Of a stretch of DNA of 64,000 bases, positions 21,901 through 49,598 are shown one piece after another. The stretch spans positions 434,001 to 498,000 of the forward strand of contig WBOU01000002.1 of assembly GCA_009268125.1 (NCBI GenBank), given 5' to 3'. This DNA is from Chloroflexia bacterium SDU3-3 (GTDB lineage: Bacteria; Chloroflexota; Chloroflexia; Chloroflexales; Roseiflexaceae). The notes below the pieces were generated by a model, which saw only the letters and a program-made list of their open reading frames with translations, searched no databases and had not been told where the DNA came from. The position numbers and the translations under genes were made by a program. Every line of letters starts with the position of its first letter. The stretch's first letter is position 1.

Positions 21901-23619
21901 CAGGTGCAGGATGCCGCCGTGCCGCAGATCAGCGCCGCCGCCGCGCAGAGCGCAGACCCCGGCGACGATGTGACCTTCAGCCACACGCTGAGCAATGTGG
22001 GCAATATCGACGACACCTTTACGCTGAGCGTGGCCCTGCCCACCGGCTGGACTATGGTCACGCCGCCCACCTCGCCTATCGGCCCGGTGACCAAGGGCGG
22101 CGGCTCGGTGAACTTTAGCTACACCGTGCACGTGCCCAGCGGCGCGCTGGCCAAGGCCTACCAGCTGGTGATCACCGCCGAGGCGGTGAACTATGGCACC
22201 GGCCCCAAGACCCAGACCGACACCGTGAATGTGAACCAGGTGGCCAGCCTGTCGCTGACCCCGGCGTCGCAGACCGCGCCCGACGAGTCGCCCAACACGG
22301 TCGTTACCTACACGCTCACGCTGAAGAACAATGGCAACTTCCGCGATACCATCACTTTGACCGCCGACGCATCGCAGGCGGCCAGCGGCTGGACCGTGGC
22401 GCTGATACCCGAGAGCGTTGCGCTGGACCCAGGCGCAAGCCAGACCATCCAGGTCGAGCTGCACATCCCGCCAGGCCAGGCCGCCTCGGTGAGCAATCTG
22501 ACCACGGTGCGCGCCACCTCGTCCATCCCCAGCGAGCACCAGGAGGCCACCATCACCACCGGCATCAAGGCGGTGCCCGGCGTGCTGATCGAGCCGCATG
22601 CCCAGGTGAAGTCGGCCAGCGCTGGCAGCCTGATCACCTTCGACTTCACGGTGATGAACAGCGGCAGCGTGGACCAGACCATCAGCGCGGCGCTGGGCAC
22701 CGTGACCAACCCGGTGGGGGCCACGGTGATCTTTACCGGCACCACCACGCCGCAGCTGCTGACGCCTGGGCAGACTATTGCGGTGAAGCTGACCGTGCAG
22801 GTGCCTGACGACGCGCCAGACAACACCGATATCGTCGCGCAGATCCTGGCCTCGTCGGACAACACCAACTCCACCGGCCAGGGCGCGAGCGACGAGGCCA
22901 CCGCCACTGTGCGCATCGGCCCGCCCTACGCGGTGATCATCGACCCCGACCGTGCGGGCGCGGCGCTGCCGGGCGAGATCATCCAGTACACGCACTACGT
23001 CACCAACACAGGCCGCATGGAGGACTCGATCACGCTGCAGGCGCAGTCCAACCTGGGCTGGATCACGTCGGTGTCGCCTGCCAGTGTGCGCCTTGCCGCC
23101 TTCGCATCCACGGCGGTGACGGTGACGGTGCAGGTGCCGGGCACCGCCAACGCGGGTGCGATCGACACCACCTATATCACCGCACGCTCGGTGGGCGACC
23201 CGACCGCCTTCGACCGCGCCACGGCCACCACCACGGTGCTGCAGCAGGCCGGGGTGAACATCTCGCCGAACCGCACCGCGCGCACCCAGCCGGGCAAGCT
23301 CTACTTCCTGCACACGCTCTCGAATATTGGCAACGGCGTCGATACCTACACGATCACCACCACCCAGGATCTGGACTGGGCGGTGACGGTGAACTACACC
23401 GAGCCGCGCGGTGGCCTGCCGCGCGGCAGCAGCCAACTGGTGCAGATCGTGGTGACCGTGCCCGATGATGTGGGCGACCAGGTGCGCAACCGCATTGTGG
23501 TGCGAGCGACCTCGAAGTACGACCCCACGGTCTACTCCGAGGCGACCGATATTATCGTGCCGGATGCGATCGTCTCTGGGCTGACCTACAGTACCTATCT
23601 GCCGATGGTGCAAAAGTGA
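18988..23619 (+). CDS. very large secreted beta-helix protein with seven NEW3-like domains and YLPMV tag
   Basis: The GTG at 18988 is chosen because GAGGAGGA lies 7 bp before it; the product is 1543 residues. The signal peptide ([19 protein letters not shown]) ends RPTFAA. After [21 protein letters not shown] comes a parallel beta-helix of NxIxGNxIG-type coils (about 60-640). A Cys-containing sandwich ([34 protein letters not shown]) follows, then seven repeats of about 110 residues with the signature hTLsNxGNxxDTfTl (for example [19 protein letters not shown] and [19 protein letters not shown]). The C-terminus is [10 protein letters not shown]. It is probably a surface-exposed adhesin-like or glycan-interacting protein. 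Its stop codon overlaps the aroQ start as TGATG. Confidence 0.78.
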
Positions 23620-24044
23620 TGAAAATCCTGATTTTACACGGGCCGAATCTGAACATGCTGGGTCGTCGCGAGCCTGCCATCTATGGCGTGACCACGCTGG
23701 CCCAGATCGACGAGGCGCTGCGCGAGCGCGCCGAGGCGGCGGGCGCGCAGCTGCTGTGCTTTCAGTCCAACCACGAGGGTGCGCTGATCGACTTTCTGCA
23801 GGCCGAGGGCTGGGATGCCGACGGGATCGTGATCAACCCCGGCGCGCTGACCCACTATGGCCTCTCGCTGCGCGATGCGCTGGCCAGCCTGGATGCCAAG
23901 ATCGTGGAGGTGCATCTCTCCAACGTCTACAAGCGCGAGGAGTTTCGCCACCACTCGGTGGTCGCGCCGGTGGCCAGCGGCCAGATCGCCGGGCTGGGCT
24001 GGCGCGGCTATCTGCTGGCGCTCGACTGGCTGCTGGAGCAGTAG
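23619..24044 (+). CDS. aroQ: 3-dehydroquinate dehydratase, type II
   Basis: AroQ removes water from 3-dehydroquinate in the shikimate pathway. The 141-residue protein shows [17 protein letters not shown] with the catalytic Tyr, [30 protein letters not shown], the catalytic His region [18 protein letters not shown], and G-x-GWRGY. The ATG at 23619 shares its A with the TGA of the preceding beta-helix gene. No independent ribosome binding site is evident, so translation is likely coupled. A housekeeping shikimate gene riding on a 4.6-kb secreted-protein gene is odd. A terminator follows. Confidence 0.96.
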
Positions 24045-24060
24045 CGCCGCCAGGTGTGGC

Positions 24061-24096
24061 AAGGGCCGGGGAGGGTTGCTCCTCCTCGGCCCTTTT
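24061..24096 (+). terminator. intrinsic terminator after aroQ
   Basis: AAGGGCCGGGGAGG pairs with CCTCCTCGGCCCTT (one G-T wobble, loop GTTGCT) and runs into TTTT. Its right arm is also the beginning of the 60-bp direct repeat. Confidence 0.8.
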
Positions 24097-24143
24097 GCGT
24101 GCGCTGCGGTATAGTCGGCCCGTTGGCCGCCATAGGGTGGCAG
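24084..24143. repeat. 60-bp direct repeat, left copy
   Basis: This 60-bp sequence (terminator right arm, a -10-like TATAGT at 24110-24115, and GGCCCGTTGGCCGCCATAGG-type spacer) recurs at 24938-24997 with two substitutions. The two copies bracket a 794-bp repeat-filled block. Confidence 0.9.
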
Positions 24144-24199
24144 GGTCGACCTGAGCCGGTGCTTCTATCGACGATGTGGGTTCCTCGTGGCTAGTGAGT

Positions 24200-24281
24200 G
24201 TGTGCCCTGCGCGGGCGGCGTCCGGGGGCCAGCACCCGGAACCCCCGCCAGGGGCATCGCCCCTCACATGGTGTCACTTTT
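24200..24281 (+). repeat. dispersed repeat block R1
   Basis: GTGCCCTGCGCGGGCGGCGT begins a GC-rich self-complementary block (GGGGGCCAGCACCCGGAACC, then CCAGGGGCATCGCCCCTCAC) ending ATGGTGTCACTTTT. A reverse-complement relative is at 44909-44976. Confidence 0.7.
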
Positions 24282-24375
24282 GGAGTGGTTCTGCGTCGGC
24301 CCGACCGTCGGCAATGCTTGAAGTGTTGCCCGATCAGGTCGACCGGTTGCGGCTTCGATGAAGGTGATCCTTTTG

Positions 24376-24556
24376 TTTGGTGGGTGGATGCCCTGCGCGG
24401 GCGGCTCCGAGGGGCCAGCCCCTCGGAACCCCGCCAGAGGGCATCGCCCCCTTGGAACCCCCAATTTATAGCATTCCTATGCCGAAATCCGGCGGCTGAT
24501 GTGCGTGCATATGGCCAGTTTGCACGAGTAGCACCTTCGCCGCATGGGCCGGGCGG
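24376..24556 (+). repeat. dispersed repeat block R2
   Basis: The block runs GGTGGGTGGATGCCCTGCGC, GGGGCCAGCCCCTCGGAACC, GGCATCGCCCCCTTGGAACC, CCAATTTATAGCATTCCTAT, CATATGGCCAGTTTGCACGA and CACCTTCGCCGCATGGGCCG. The same order of segments appears in reverse complement at 44690-44872 and, partly, directly at 24655-24770. Confidence 0.75.
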
Positions 24557-24654
24557 ATGCGATTCCCGATCTCGCGTGCCGTGCCTGGCTTGGCACGCTT
24601 GATGGTACGCTTTACTGCATCCCGATGCCCTGCCCACAAACGTGATACCTGCTG

Positions 24655-24770
24655 AGGGCATCGCCCTTGGAACCCCAATTTGAGGCGTTCCGATGCTGTT
24701 TTCCTGGCGGCTGGTGTTCGTGCATATGGCCAGTTTGCACGAGTAGCATCTTCGCCGCATGGGCCGGGTG
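24655..24770 (+). repeat. dispersed repeat block R3 (partial R2)
   Basis: The block repeats the right part of R2: GGGCATCGCCCTTGGAACCC, AATTTGAGGCGTTCCGATGC, CATATGGCCAGTTTGCACGA and CATCTTCGCCGCATGGGCCG. Confidence 0.75.
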
Positions 24771-24937
24771 AATGAGATTTTTGATCTTACGTACCGTGCA
24801 TGCCCCGGCACCCCGGATCGCCCCGTCTGCCGCATCCGAAAGACCGGCACACAGAGGAACCGCCATCGTGGATGGCACACCAGCGCTGCTACGGCCATCT
24901 TTTGTCAGATACCCGCAGGCGCGCCTGCGCGGTGAAC

Positions 24938-24997
24938 CCTCGGCCCTTTTGCGTGCGCTGCGGTATAATCGGCCCGTTGGCCGCCATAGGGCGGCAG
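24938..24997. repeat. 60-bp direct repeat, right copy carrying the gmhA promoter
   Basis: This copy differs from 24084-24143 at two positions. One turns TATAGT into consensus TATAAT (24964-24969), so it probably supplies the gmhA -10. The terminator's left arm is missing here. Confidence 0.85.
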
Positions 24998-25014: not shown

Positions 25015-25575
25015 ATGGCCTCATTTCAGCAGCAGATAGATGAGATCACCGCCGTGCACGCGGCCCTGGCCACGCTGGCCCCGACCGTGGATGCGATCGC
25101 CGCGCTGGTGCGCGACACCGTGCTGGGCGGCGGCGTGCTCTACACCGCAGGCAACGGCGGCAGCTCCACCGACGCCCAGCACCTGGCCGAGGAGCTGCTG
25201 GCGCGCTACCGCAGCAACCGCCGCGCCCTTCCGGCCATAGCGCTCACCGCCGACTCGTCGGTGCTCACATGTATCGGCAACGACTTTGGCTACGAGGCGC
25301 TGTTCTCGCGCCAGATCGAGGGCCTGGTGCGCCCCGGCGATGTGGTGCTGGTGTTCACCACCAGCGGCAACTCGCCCAACATGGTGGCCGCGCTGAAGGC
25401 CGCCCGCGAGAAGGGCGGCAAGACCGTGGCGCTGCTGGGCAAGACCGGCGGCGCATGCAAGGGCCTGGCCGACCTAGAGCTGATCGTGCCGAGCGACAAC
25501 ACCGCGCGTATCCAAGAGTGCCACCTGCAGGTGCTGCACTACATATGCGAGGTGGTGGAGGAGGCGCTGGTCTAG
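25015..25575 (+). CDS. gmhA: SIS-domain sedoheptulose-7-phosphate isomerase (GmhA-type)
   Basis: GmhA converts sedoheptulose 7-phosphate to heptose 7-phosphate for surface heptose synthesis. The 186-residue SIS-domain protein has TAGNGGSSTDAQHLAEELLARY (about 44-65), LTADSSVLTCIGNDFGYEALFSRQIE, FTTSGNSPNMVAALKAA and IVPSDNTARIQECHLQVLHYICEVVE. The last segment carries the Glu/His pair typical of GmhA and its relative DiaA. The ATG follows GAAAGG. No other heptose gene is in the window, so a DiaA-like role cannot be excluded. The stop codon shares CTAG with the convergent membrane-protein gene. Confidence 0.88.
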   Translation: MASFQQQIDEITAVHAALATLAPTVDAIAALVRDTVLGGGVLYTAGNGGSSTDAQHLAEELLARYRSNRRALPAIALTADSSVLTCIGNDFGYEALFSRQIEGLVRPGDVVLVFTTSGNSPNMVAALKAAREKGGKTVALLGKTGGACKGLADLELIVPSDNTARIQECHLQVLHYICEVVEEALV

Positions 25576-43329: not shown

Positions 43330-44403
43330 ATGACCCAGCAGCACACCATTGGCGAAGCGCCACAGCAGGCGGCCAGCGAGGCCGGGCTGCGCTACGTGAG
43401 CGACCGCCGCCCCGGCATCCGGCGCGAGCGGCGCGGCGAGGCGTTTGTCTACCTCGACACGCGGGGCCGCCCGATCGACGACGAGCGCACGCTCGACCGC
43501 ATCCGGCGGCTGGCCATCCCGCCCGCCTACACCGATGTGTGGATCTGCCCCACCGCCAACGGCCACATCCAGGCCACCGGGCGCGACGCGCGTGGCCGCA
43601 AGCAGTACCGCTACCACCCGCGCTGGCGCGCCGCGCGCGACGAGACCAAGTTCGAGCGCATGCTGGCCTTCGGCCAGGCTCTGCCGCACATCCGCGAGCG
43701 CGTGGCCAGCGACATGGCGCTGCCTGGCCTGCCGCGCGCCAAGGTGCTGGCCACCGTGGTGCGCCTGCTGGAGCTGACGCTCATCCGCGTGGGCAACGAC
43801 GAGTACGCCCGCAGCAACAAATCCTACGGCCTGACCACCATGCGCGACAAGCACGTGCAGATCGAGGGCGCGCAGGTGCGCTTCTCGTTCAAGGGCAAGA
43901 GCGGGGTGCGCCACGAGATCAGCGTGCGCGACCGCAGGCTGGCGCAGATCGTGCGGCGCTCGCGCGATCTGCCCGGCTACGAGCTGTTCCAGTATGTGGA
44001 TGAGCAGGGCCAGCGCCACGATGTCACATCCGACGATGTGAACGCCTACCTGCAGGAGATCACCGGCGAGCACTTCACCGCCAAGGACTTCCGCACCTGG
44101 GCGGGCACCGTGCTCTGCACCGTGGCCCTGGGCGAGCTTGGCCCCGCCGAGCGCGAGCCAGAGGCCAAGCGCCACGTGGCCCAGGCGGTGGAGCGCGTGG
44201 CCCGGCAGCTGGGCAACACCGCCTCGGTCTGCCGCAAGAGCTACATCCACCCCGAGGTGATCAGCGCCTACCTCGACGGCACGCTGATCGAGACCCTGCT
44301 GCAGCACGCCGCCGCCGAGCTTGCCGATGATGGCGGCCTCGACCCGCACGAGCAGGCCGCCCTGTCCTTCCTCGGCCAGCGCCTGCGCCAGGCCGACGCG
44401 TGA
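43330..44403 (+). CDS. type IB DNA topoisomerase (poxvirus-like)
   Basis: The 357-residue enzyme relaxes supercoils through a 3'-phosphotyrosyl intermediate. The N-terminal domain has [54 protein letters not shown] with the first catalytic Arg/Lys. [28 protein letters not shown] and [13 protein letters not shown] follow, then DFRTWAGT, and the active-site Tyr in [17 protein letters not shown] (about 297). The pattern R-K-R-H-Y is complete. GGAG precedes the ATG. The TGA stop codon is the first three bases of a 21-bp minisatellite. Confidence 0.95.
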
Positions 44404-44670
44404 CGCAATCGCCTTCCGGTGCGCCGCAATCGCCTTCCGGCGTGACGCAATCGGGTTCCGGTGCGATGCAATCGCCTTCCGGCGTGACGCAATTGGGTTC
44501 CGGTGCGACGCAATCGCCTTCCGGTGTGACGCAATCGCCTTCCGGTGTGACGCAATCGCCTTCCGACGTGACGCAATCGCCTTCCGACGTGACGCAATCG
44601 CCTTCCGGCGTGACGCAATCGCCTTCCGGCGTGACGCAATCGCCTTCCGACGTGACGCAATTGGGTTCCG
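44401..44670. repeat. 21-bp minisatellite, 12.9 copies
   Basis: Units start every 21 bp from 44401 to 44653, consensus TGACGCAATCGCCTTCCGGC plus G. Variation is limited to the first few bases (TGAC/CGCC/CGAT/CGAC), CGCC versus GGGT in the middle (3 units) and the last three bases. The 3-base phase keeps frames open: one forward frame reads TQSPSGV heptads and one reverse frame reads repeated K-A-I-A-S-R-R. The first unit supplies the stop codon of the topoisomerase gene. There are no spacers, so it is not a CRISPR array. Confidence 0.95.
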
Positions 44671-44689
44671 CGATGATACACCCTCTTCC

Positions 44690-44872
44690 CACCCGGCCCA
44701 TGCGGCGAAGGTGCCGCTCGTGCATACTGGCCATATGCACGAACACCAGATGCCTGATTTCGGCATAGGAATGCTCCAAATTGGGGGTTTCGAAGGGGGC
44801 AACGCCCCCTCGCGGGGTTCCTAGGGGCTGGCCCCTAGGCGCTGCCCGCGCAGGGCATCCACCCACCGAACA
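44690..44872 (-). repeat. dispersed repeat block, inverted copy of R2
   Basis: Read on the minus strand the block gives GGTGGGTGGATGCCCTGCGC, GGGGCCAGCCCCTAGGAACC, AAACCCCCAATTTGGAGCAT, CATATGGCCAGTATGCACGA and CACCTTCGCCGCATGGGCCG. This is the same order as 24376-24556. No gene lies in it. Confidence 0.75.
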
Positions 44873-44908
44873 CGTACCACCGCCATGGCTGATGGGAAAC
44901 ACTGCGAA

Positions 44909-44976
44909 AAAGTGACACCATGTGAGGGCGATGCCCCCTGGCGGGGTGCCGAGGGGCAGTCCCCTAGGCGCTGCCG
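44909..44976 (-). repeat. dispersed repeat block, inverted copy of R1
   Basis: On the minus strand the block reads GCGCCTAGGGGACTGCCCCT, CCCCGCCAGGGGGCATCGCC and CTCACATGGTGTCACTTTTT. It matches 24200-24281 and keeps the R1-R2 order with a 36-bp spacer instead of about 95 bp. Confidence 0.65.
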
Positions 44977-48647: not shown

Positions 48648-49123
48648 CCCTACAGGAACGATTGTACGAGCAGATCGACCGGCTGCGCATCTTCCCCAAC
48701 GAGCTGGCGCTGCTGGTGGGAAAGCTGACGCCCGCGCAGCTTGGCACGCCCTACCTGGCGGGCGAGTGGACGGTGGCGCAGAACGTCCACCACCTAGCCG
48801 ACTCGCACATGCACAGCTACACCCGCTGCAAGTTCGCGCTGGCCGAGGAGAACCCGACGATCAAGCCCTACGACCAGGATGTGTGGGCGGCGCTGCCCGA
48901 CGCGTCGGATGTCGACCTCGCGCCATCCATGGCGCTGCTGCGCGGCCTGCACACGCGCTGGGCCGATTTCTTCGCGGCGCTGCCCGAGGCCGCCTGGGCG
49001 CGCACGATCTTCCACCCCGAGCGCGGCACCGTGACCCTGGGCCAGCTGCTCGATGACTATGTGGCGCACGGCCAGGGCCATATCGACCAGATCGCGCGCA
49101 CGCTGGCCGCCGCGCAGGAGTGA
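48644..49123 (+). CDS. DinB-family protein
   Basis: The 159-residue four-helix-bundle protein carries the DinB metal-site histidines in EWTVAQNVHHLADSHMHSYTRCKFAL (about 41-66) and YVAHGQGHIDQIARTL (about 139-154). Members are thiol-dependent metalloenzymes or uncharacterised stress proteins. Its start overlaps the epimerase stop (ATGA), so it is translationally coupled. The next gene is a close tandem paralogue. Confidence 0.88.
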   Translation: MTLQERLYEQIDRLRIFPNELALLVGKLTPAQLGTPYLAGEWTVAQNVHHLADSHMHSYTRCKFALAEENPTIKPYDQDVWAALPDASDVDLAPSMALLRGLHTRWADFFAALPEAAWARTIFHPERGTVTLGQLLDDYVAHGQGHIDQIARTLAAAQE

Positions 49124-49133
49124 GGGAGCACCC

Positions 49134-49598
49134 ATGAGCATACACGAACAGATCGAGCTGCTGCGCCGCTTCCCCGCCGAGCTGGCGGCCCTGGTCGAGC
49201 ACCTGACGCCCGAGCAGCTTGGCACGCCCTACCTGGCAGGTGAGTGGACGGTGGCGCAGAACGTCCACCACCTGGCCGACGCGCATATGCACGCCTACCT
49301 GCGCTGCAAGTTCGCCGTCACCCAGGAGAACCCGACGGTCAAGCCCTTCGACCAGGATGCGTGGGCCGCCCAGCCCGACGCCGCCGAGCTGGACATAACG
49401 CCATCAATGGCGCTGCTGCGCGGCCTGCACGTGCGCATGACCAGCTTCTTCGCCAGCCTGCCCGACGAGGCCTGGCAGCGCCCGTTCTACCACCCCGAGC
49501 GCGGCCCGATGGTGGTGAGCGACATGCTCGCCAGCGTCGCCGCCCACTGTGTGGCCCACACCGACCAGATCACGCGCACGTTGGCTGCGGCCAAGTAG
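49134..49598 (+). CDS. DinB-family protein, tandem paralogue
   Basis: The 154-residue protein is strongly similar to the preceding one (shared LTPEQLGTPYLAGEWTVAQNVHHLAD, RCKFAVTQENPTVKPFDQDAWAAQPDA and the C-terminal AAHCVAHTDQITRTLAAAK with the second His pair). This indicates a recent tandem duplication. The C-terminal half differs more (RMTSFFASLPDEAWQRPFYHPERGPMVVSDML). GAGGGAG precedes the ATG, 10 bp after the previous stop. Confidence 0.88.
   Translation: MSIHEQIELLRRFPAELAALVEHLTPEQLGTPYLAGEWTVAQNVHHLADAHMHAYLRCKFAVTQENPTVKPFDQDAWAAQPDAAELDITPSMALLRGLHVRMTSFFASLPDEAWQRPFYHPERGPMVVSDMLASVAAHCVAHTDQITRTLAAAK

What the first reader, a model, noticed from the sequence alone, without database searches (positions are those of the whole stretch)
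24084..24997. 794-bp repeat block inserted between 60-bp direct repeats, splitting terminator from promoter
Seen: 24084-24143 and 24938-24997 match at 58 of 60 positions. The left copy keeps the full aroQ terminator with a TATAGT box; the right copy has only the terminator's right arm but the intact TATAAT of gmhA. Between them are only dispersed repeats. Inference: an insertion duplicated the aroQ-gmhA junction. A 60-bp duplication is far longer than usual transposon target duplications, so a different mechanism (slippage, or recombination between repeats) is likely.
Basis: partly seen in the sequence, partly recalled or inferred. Interest (0 to 1): 0.6.

Follow-up and report, generated by a model that had tools for sequence, protein, structure and literature searches.

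The report
Degenerate transposon remnant inside duplicated promoter
A stretch of worn-out, nested mini-transposons sits between two bacterial genes, flanked by a 60-letter duplication of the gene junction that is too long to be this element family's normal insertion footprint; it is mostly an ordinary insertion with one unexplained detail.

Summary
24084-24143 and 24938-24997 match at 58/60, and this 60-mer occurs nowhere else in the genome. The 794 bp between them are mostly copies of one genus-specific dispersed family. That family resolves into a MITE-like element: terminal inverted repeats CTCACATGGTGTCACTTTT, 335-431 bp, and a 10-bp target duplication (9 of 30 two-ended copies perfect; 0 of 20000 permutations as good). 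Ten contig ends stop inside one identical sequence carrying the same end, probably an assembly-collapsed IS that mobilises it. In the window an intact MITE, X (24263-24656, perfect TSD GGCATCGCCC), is nested in an older worn copy, Y. The 60-bp repeat flanks Y plus rearranged scraps. Neither outer end of that insert is a terminal repeat, and 60 bp is not the family's 10 bp. Of 80 family blocks screened, only this one and L148 (about 47 bp, diverged) have long flanking repeats. Best reading: a fragment of an existing repeat locus was inserted by break repair or template switching that re-copied 60 bp, leaving aroQ's terminator hairpin and gmhA's leader whole. No same-genus genome exists to show the empty site. 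Mechanism inferred, not shown.

The parts
23616..24044 (+). aroQ, class II 3-dehydroquinate dehydratase (listed GTG start; in-frame ATG at 23619)
   Evidence: PF01220 E 6.5e-57
24059..24098 (+). strong hairpin after aroQ (terminator-like, only TTTT after the stem); left arm outside, right arm inside the 60-bp repeat
   Evidence: fold -32 kcal/mol, z -5.05; scanner finds no terminator
24084..24143 (+). left copy of the 60-bp direct repeat (TATAGT at 24110-24115)
   Evidence: 58/60 to the right copy; unique to this locus
24144..24262 (+). 5' part of the outer, worn MITE copy Y; it lacks its left terminal repeat
   Evidence: with X left out, Y aligns over nearly its whole length to MITEs at L015, L018, L023, L026, L030, L032
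24253..24262 (+). left 10-bp target duplication of X, GGCATCGCCC
   Evidence: 10/10 with 24657-24666
24263..24656 (+). nested MITE X, 394 bp, with terminal repeats CTCACATGGTGTCACTTTT and (degenerate) ACGTGATACCTGCTGAG
   Evidence: 24260-24283 is identical over 24 nt to the end of a multi-copy element
24657..24850 (+). right target duplication of X (24657-24666) and 3' part of Y
24857..24882 (-). inverted 26-nt scrap of the family's own 5' region
   Evidence: 25/26 on the minus strand at C2:365423-365448, a place that also carries the family core
24883..24937 (.). unassigned end of the insert, with palindrome GCAGGCGCGCCTGC
   Evidence: no significant match in the genome
24938..24997 (+). right copy of the 60-bp direct repeat (TATAAT at 24964-24969)
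25015..25575 (+). gmhA-like SIS-domain gene
   Evidence: PF13580 E 3.1e-23

Best explanation
A fragment of an existing repeat locus was inserted into the aroQ-gmhA junction. The fragment is worn MITE Y, with X nested in it or added later, plus rearranged scraps. The event duplicated 60 bp of the target. Because neither outer end of the insert is a terminal repeat and the family's own duplication is 10 bp, the insertion was probably not an ordinary transposition. More likely it was break repair: either a staggered break filled in around a captured fragment, or a polymerase that switched to an ectopic repeat copy and then came back 60 bp upstream of where it left. The duplication kept the aroQ hairpin whole on the left and the gmhA leader whole on the right, so the event could be tolerated. 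Shown: the two copies, their uniqueness, the MITE family with 10-bp TSD, the nesting, and the lack of terminal repeats at the outer ends. Inferred: that it was a single event, its mechanism and its tolerance.
For: 58/60 copies, unique in the genome. The hairpin arm straddles the repeat boundary, so one 60-bp copy is ancestral to both sides. The insert belongs to a family with 62 core sites at 3 or fewer mismatches, control 0, found in none of 25 other family genomes. 10-bp TSD: 9 of 30 perfect against 33 of 870 in cross-pairs. The outer ends of the insert do not match the terminal repeats. The right end is a mosaic with an inverted family scrap. 2/60 differences between the copies are compatible with the 6-9% divergence of the nearest paralogues of the insert, but less than the typical 15-25%.
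Against: No empty-site allele is available. No convincing microhomology marks the junctions. The order of events (duplication, Y, X) is not resolved by 2/60 differences. L148 has a similar but older arrangement, which would fit a recurrent, family-linked process rather than a single accident. The sequence just before the right copy (GGTGAACC) resembles the gmhA leader after it (GATGAACC), which could be a relic of a longer tandem duplication; six matching bases there have roughly a 6% chance by my own estimate, not by a call.
Confidence: 0.5

Rival explanations
1. Two steps: the junction (60 bp or a little more) was first duplicated in tandem by slippage; repeat elements then landed in or between the copies, and their outer ends eroded.
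For: The right copy is preceded by GGTGAACC, like the gmhA leader GATGAACC (one search prints both stretches). The island holds at least two layers of elements, so repeated hits at one place do happen.
Against: The insert would have to fall at the copy boundary, or erosion to stop there. The six-base resemblance is weak evidence.
Confidence: 0.22
2. Transposition of Y (or its IS) itself made a long, variable-length target duplication, as reported for IS1549 and IS1634.
For: Long DRs of 8-514 bp are on record for IS1549/IS1634 (PMC2266710, passages). L148, a copy of the same family, has a diverged DR of about 47 bp, with one side near a terminal repeat. A multi-copy element with these ends is present.
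Against: The family's duplication is 10 bp where it can be measured. 78 of 80 blocks show no long DR. Y lacks terminal repeats at the junctions. The IS1634 family model found only one sub-threshold fragment, without these ends nearby.
Confidence: 0.15
3. The 60-bp copies are attachment sites of a former integrative element.
For: Direct repeats of such length can flank integrated elements (general knowledge, no call).
Against: Neither of the two longest frames in the insert has a Pfam match, and the insert is family repeats; the 60 bp occurs nowhere else.
Confidence: 0.03
4. Assembly artefact at a repeat.
For: The genome is a 51-contig draft that breaks at a multi-copy element.
Against: The copies differ at 2 of 60 positions and carry different flanks, which a collapsed or mis-joined repeat would not give.
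Confidence: 0.04

Closest known systems
MITEs (non-autonomous, IS-derived elements with terminal inverted repeats and short TSDs)
   Same: terminal inverted repeats, no coding match, 335-431 bp, 10-bp TSD, ends shared with a multi-copy element
   Different: the family was found in only one genome here; many copies are fragments in nested, hairpin-rich islands
IS4 family, e.g. IS231 (about 10-bp DRs; PMC2266710 passages; the GGG-N5-CCC target of IS231A is recalled, not read)
   Same: 10-bp duplication; targets such as (G)GGCATCGCCC
   Different: the transposase could not be identified; only a 32-residue C-terminal stub is visible, with no Pfam or NCBIfam match
IS1549 / IS1634 with long variable DRs (8-514 bp; PMC2266710 passages)
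   Same: a mobile-element copy flanked by an unusually long direct repeat
   Different: insert ends here are not terminal repeats; the family's usual DR is 10 bp; no member over cut-off in the genome
IS1272 (IS1182 family), which replaces stem-loops (PMC5678879, section 22 and passages)
   Same: inverted repeats as targets
   Different: IS1272 gave no TSD, these elements do; PF13751 has 0 matches

Membership tests
MITE | terminal inverted repeats | tested here: met
   30 copies with both ends at 2 or fewer mismatches, 335-431 bp; 211 end sites genome-wide, control 1
MITE | target-site duplication | tested here: met
   10 bp; 9 of 30 perfect, permutation 0 of 20000. Met for the nested X in the window; the outer 60-bp repeat does not fit as the TSD of Y
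MITE | ends shared with an autonomous element | tested here: inconclusive
   10 contig ends, 117-130 nt at 100% identity, begin with the MITE end; MITE copies share 20-24 nt of it at 96-100%. That the element is autonomous is not shown: its full length is not visible
IS4-family derivative | YREK transposase with matching ends | tested here: inconclusive
   no visible DDE_Tnp_1 gene has these ends; the multi-copy element is only seen as stubs
IS1634 family (long DRs) | IS1634-type transposase | tested here: not met
   one match below the cut-off in visible sequence
IS1182 family | DDE_Tnp_1_6 transposase | tested here: not met
   PF13751: 0 matches
Known structured RNA | Rfam match | tested here: not met
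   0 matches at gathering cut-offs in the window

The most novel reading that the evidence does not exclude
This MITE/IS family, or the host's handling of hairpin-rich repeats, now and then inserts family fragments with 47-60 bp target duplications at intergenic hairpins. The window locus would be a young and L148 an old product of one recurrent process distinct from the family's normal 10-bp transposition.
Probability: 0.15. Interest if true: 0.5.

Novelty: new member of a known kind. Interest (0 to 1): 0.3.

Why it matters
It explains a confusing intergenic block as nested mini-transposons and defines a MITE family that, among 26 genomes of its taxonomic family, is seen only in this one. The long flanking duplication is a small example of how bacterial junctions can take up repeat DNA while leaving both neighbouring genes' signals whole. 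PMC2266710 says that long variable duplications have no mechanistic model, so a case where the family's TSD length and the insert ends can be told apart is useful.

Tried and rejected
Rejected: the 60 bp as a dispersed repeat; the 60 bp as the family's regular TSD; IS1182 type; a known RNA family; coding content of the insert (two long frames, no Pfam match); a plasmid origin (no match in PLSDB).

Led nowhere: a lenient self-alignment screen drowned in coding-sequence noise, and the first gapped screen gave no overall excess (Mann-Whitney P 0.21) because coding flanks align; it left out blocks in L031, L171 and L175 for short flanks. Flank-limited screens were used instead. Classifying the multi-copy element from its 32-residue stub failed. 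The literature searches listed no description of this family; they cover only open-licence PMC papers, and I read only passages of PMC2266710 and passages plus section 22 of PMC5678879.

Counts: the flank screen used 80 blocks from 79 loci; one search used 86 blocks at a looser definition. The end pattern has 211 sites, of which the tool listed the first 100. The 914-bp search scored 40 of 324 candidates, so 81 matches is a lower bound.

Full report
Setting. The window is C2:434001-498000 of a 6.76-Mb, 51-contig genome. Two same-family genomes have aroQ contigs with the lengths of a named Roseiflexaceae MAG contig (13657, JACMIM010000749.1) and a 'Chloroflexi bacterium AL-N1' contig (89319, WYDT01000027.1), so it is probably a Roseiflexaceae (Chloroflexota) genome; this is inference. 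Its genus holds no other genome in the collection.

Observation. 24084-24143 and 24938-24997 agree at 58 of 60 positions, and the 60-mer has no third copy at E up to 10 other than 14-25 nt scraps. The hairpin following aroQ (24059-24098; -32 kcal/mol, z -5.05, 0 of 200 shuffles as good) uses bases left of the repeat for one arm and bases of the left copy for the other. The right copy has only the second arm. The right copy runs directly into the gmhA leader. Hence a single ancestral 60 bp must have touched both, and the block between is an addition. Promoter and terminator consensus scans are negative here, so those labels rest on the hairpin and the TATAAT alone.

The block is a mobile-element island. 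A genome search with the 914 bp gave 81 matches, with 40 of 324 candidates scored. The core CATATGGCCAGTTTGCACGAGTAGCA has 62 sites at up to 3 mismatches (reversed control 0). None of the 25 other family genomes has the 183-bp core unit. In 79 loci (39 + 39 fetched around copies, plus the window) I found pairs of inverted ends GGTGTCACTTTT...AAAAGTGACACC. Thirty copies with both full ends are 335-431 bp long. The ten bases on either side are identical in 9 of 30 and agree at 9 or more in 13 of 30, against 33 of 870 (10/10) for cross-pairs; 0 of 20000 permutations reached 9. Lengths of 9, 11 or 12 show no such excess. So the family is a MITE with a 10-bp TSD, often in palindromes such as GGCATCGCCC.

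Likely driver. Ten contig ends match one identical sequence over 117-130 nt that begins with this terminal repeat, the signature of a multi-copy IS collapsed by the assembler. Its transposase is not readable: the seven smallest contigs I asked for are withheld, and a 32-residue C-terminal stub has no Pfam or NCBIfam match. PF13751 gives 0 matches, PF01609 three without these ends nearby, the IS1634 model one sub-threshold fragment. A 10-bp TSD suits the IS4 family ('about 10 bp', PMC2266710, passages), but membership is unproven.

Anatomy of the insert. X (24263-24656) is a MITE with a perfect TSD (24253-24262 / 24657-24666). With X and one TSD copy left out, the remainder Y (24144-24877, 330 nt) aligns nearly end to end at 71-72% with MITEs at L015, L018, L023, L026, L030, L032 and L148; 85 of 135 matches cross the junction. 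Y lacks about 22 nt of left end. On its right, 24857-24882 matches an inverted piece of the family 25/26, better than it matches a terminal repeat. 24883-24937 is unassigned. So neither outer boundary of the insert is a transposon end.

Is the 60-bp repeat the rule? No. Among 80 family blocks, comparing flanks within and between loci, only two stand out: the window (110-nt flanks) and L148 (score 22 with 60-nt flanks; 0.0002 of cross-pairs as good). L148 (C5:381500-384000) repeats the end of a gene and the start of the hairpin behind it, 27 nt at 85%, extending to about 47 nt with a 14-nt gap. If all copies had made 60-bp duplications at their age (15-25% divergence), many should still be visible; that is an estimate, not a simulation. 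In 279 kb of window and loci, 12 direct pairs of 35 nt or more at 90% or more lie 100-3000 nt apart; the window array at 44398-44670 appears twice among them (also as L159), and I did not classify all the others one by one.

Relatives. 25 of 26 family genomes including this one have aroQ. Of the 24 others, two have gmhA within 1.5 kb, both directly downstream and without any block: G006, where the genes nearly touch, and G001, about 106 nt apart. The 60 bp itself is not recognisable there, so this shows an order without the island but not a base-exact empty site.

Timing. The two 60-bp copies differ at 3.3% (2/60). Nearest paralogues of the insert are 6% (183-bp core, L009/L031) to 9% (A+X part, L009) away; family copies differ mostly by 15-25%. 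One recent event is compatible; the order of duplication, Y and X cannot be fixed from two differences.

Verdict. The finding is real and its dispersed-repeat refutation is excluded, but its content is mostly ordinary: nested, worn MITEs. The unexplained part is the 60-bp duplication around an insert without transposon ends. I favour illegitimate insertion with re-copying of 60 bp (0.5), over duplication first (0.22), long-TSD transposition (0.15), artefact (0.04) and attachment sites (0.03). Long DRs around bacterial insertion sequences are already on record (IS1549/IS1634, 8-514 bp, PMC2266710, passages read).

Noticed in passing
window 44689-44975 (- strand) and 44398-44661: A second family copy in the window, next to a 21-bp tandem array (GCGTGACGCAATCGCCTTCCG, 12.6 copies). 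Other copies (e.g. L145, L169, L174) also sit beside short tandem arrays.
   Followed up: partly
L148 (G000:C5:381500-384000), about 1042-1089 and 1442-1502: Another family copy flanked by a diverged direct repeat of about 47 bp that copies the 3' end of the upstream gene and part of its hairpin.
   Followed up: partly
family core modules, e.g. window 24400-24430: The central hairpin arms change together: GCCTAGGGG/CCCCTAGGA (17), GCCGAGGGG/CCCCTCGGA (11), GCACAGGGG/CCCCTGTGA (5), GGCTAGGGG/CCCCTAGC[A/G] (7) of 75 modules, suggesting the palindrome is kept, by selection or by hairpin-directed repair.
   Followed up: no
contig ends C3, C11, C14, C18, C19, C20 (both), C25, C36, C38; also C6, C13, C41: Contigs break inside at least two different multi-copy sequences that share the MITE ends (one with CACAT, one with CAACA next to GGTGTCAC); C41 carries such stubs at both its ends.
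   Followed up: partly
window 48666-49585: Tandem duplication of a 478-bp unit (1.9 copies, 78% matches).
   Followed up: no
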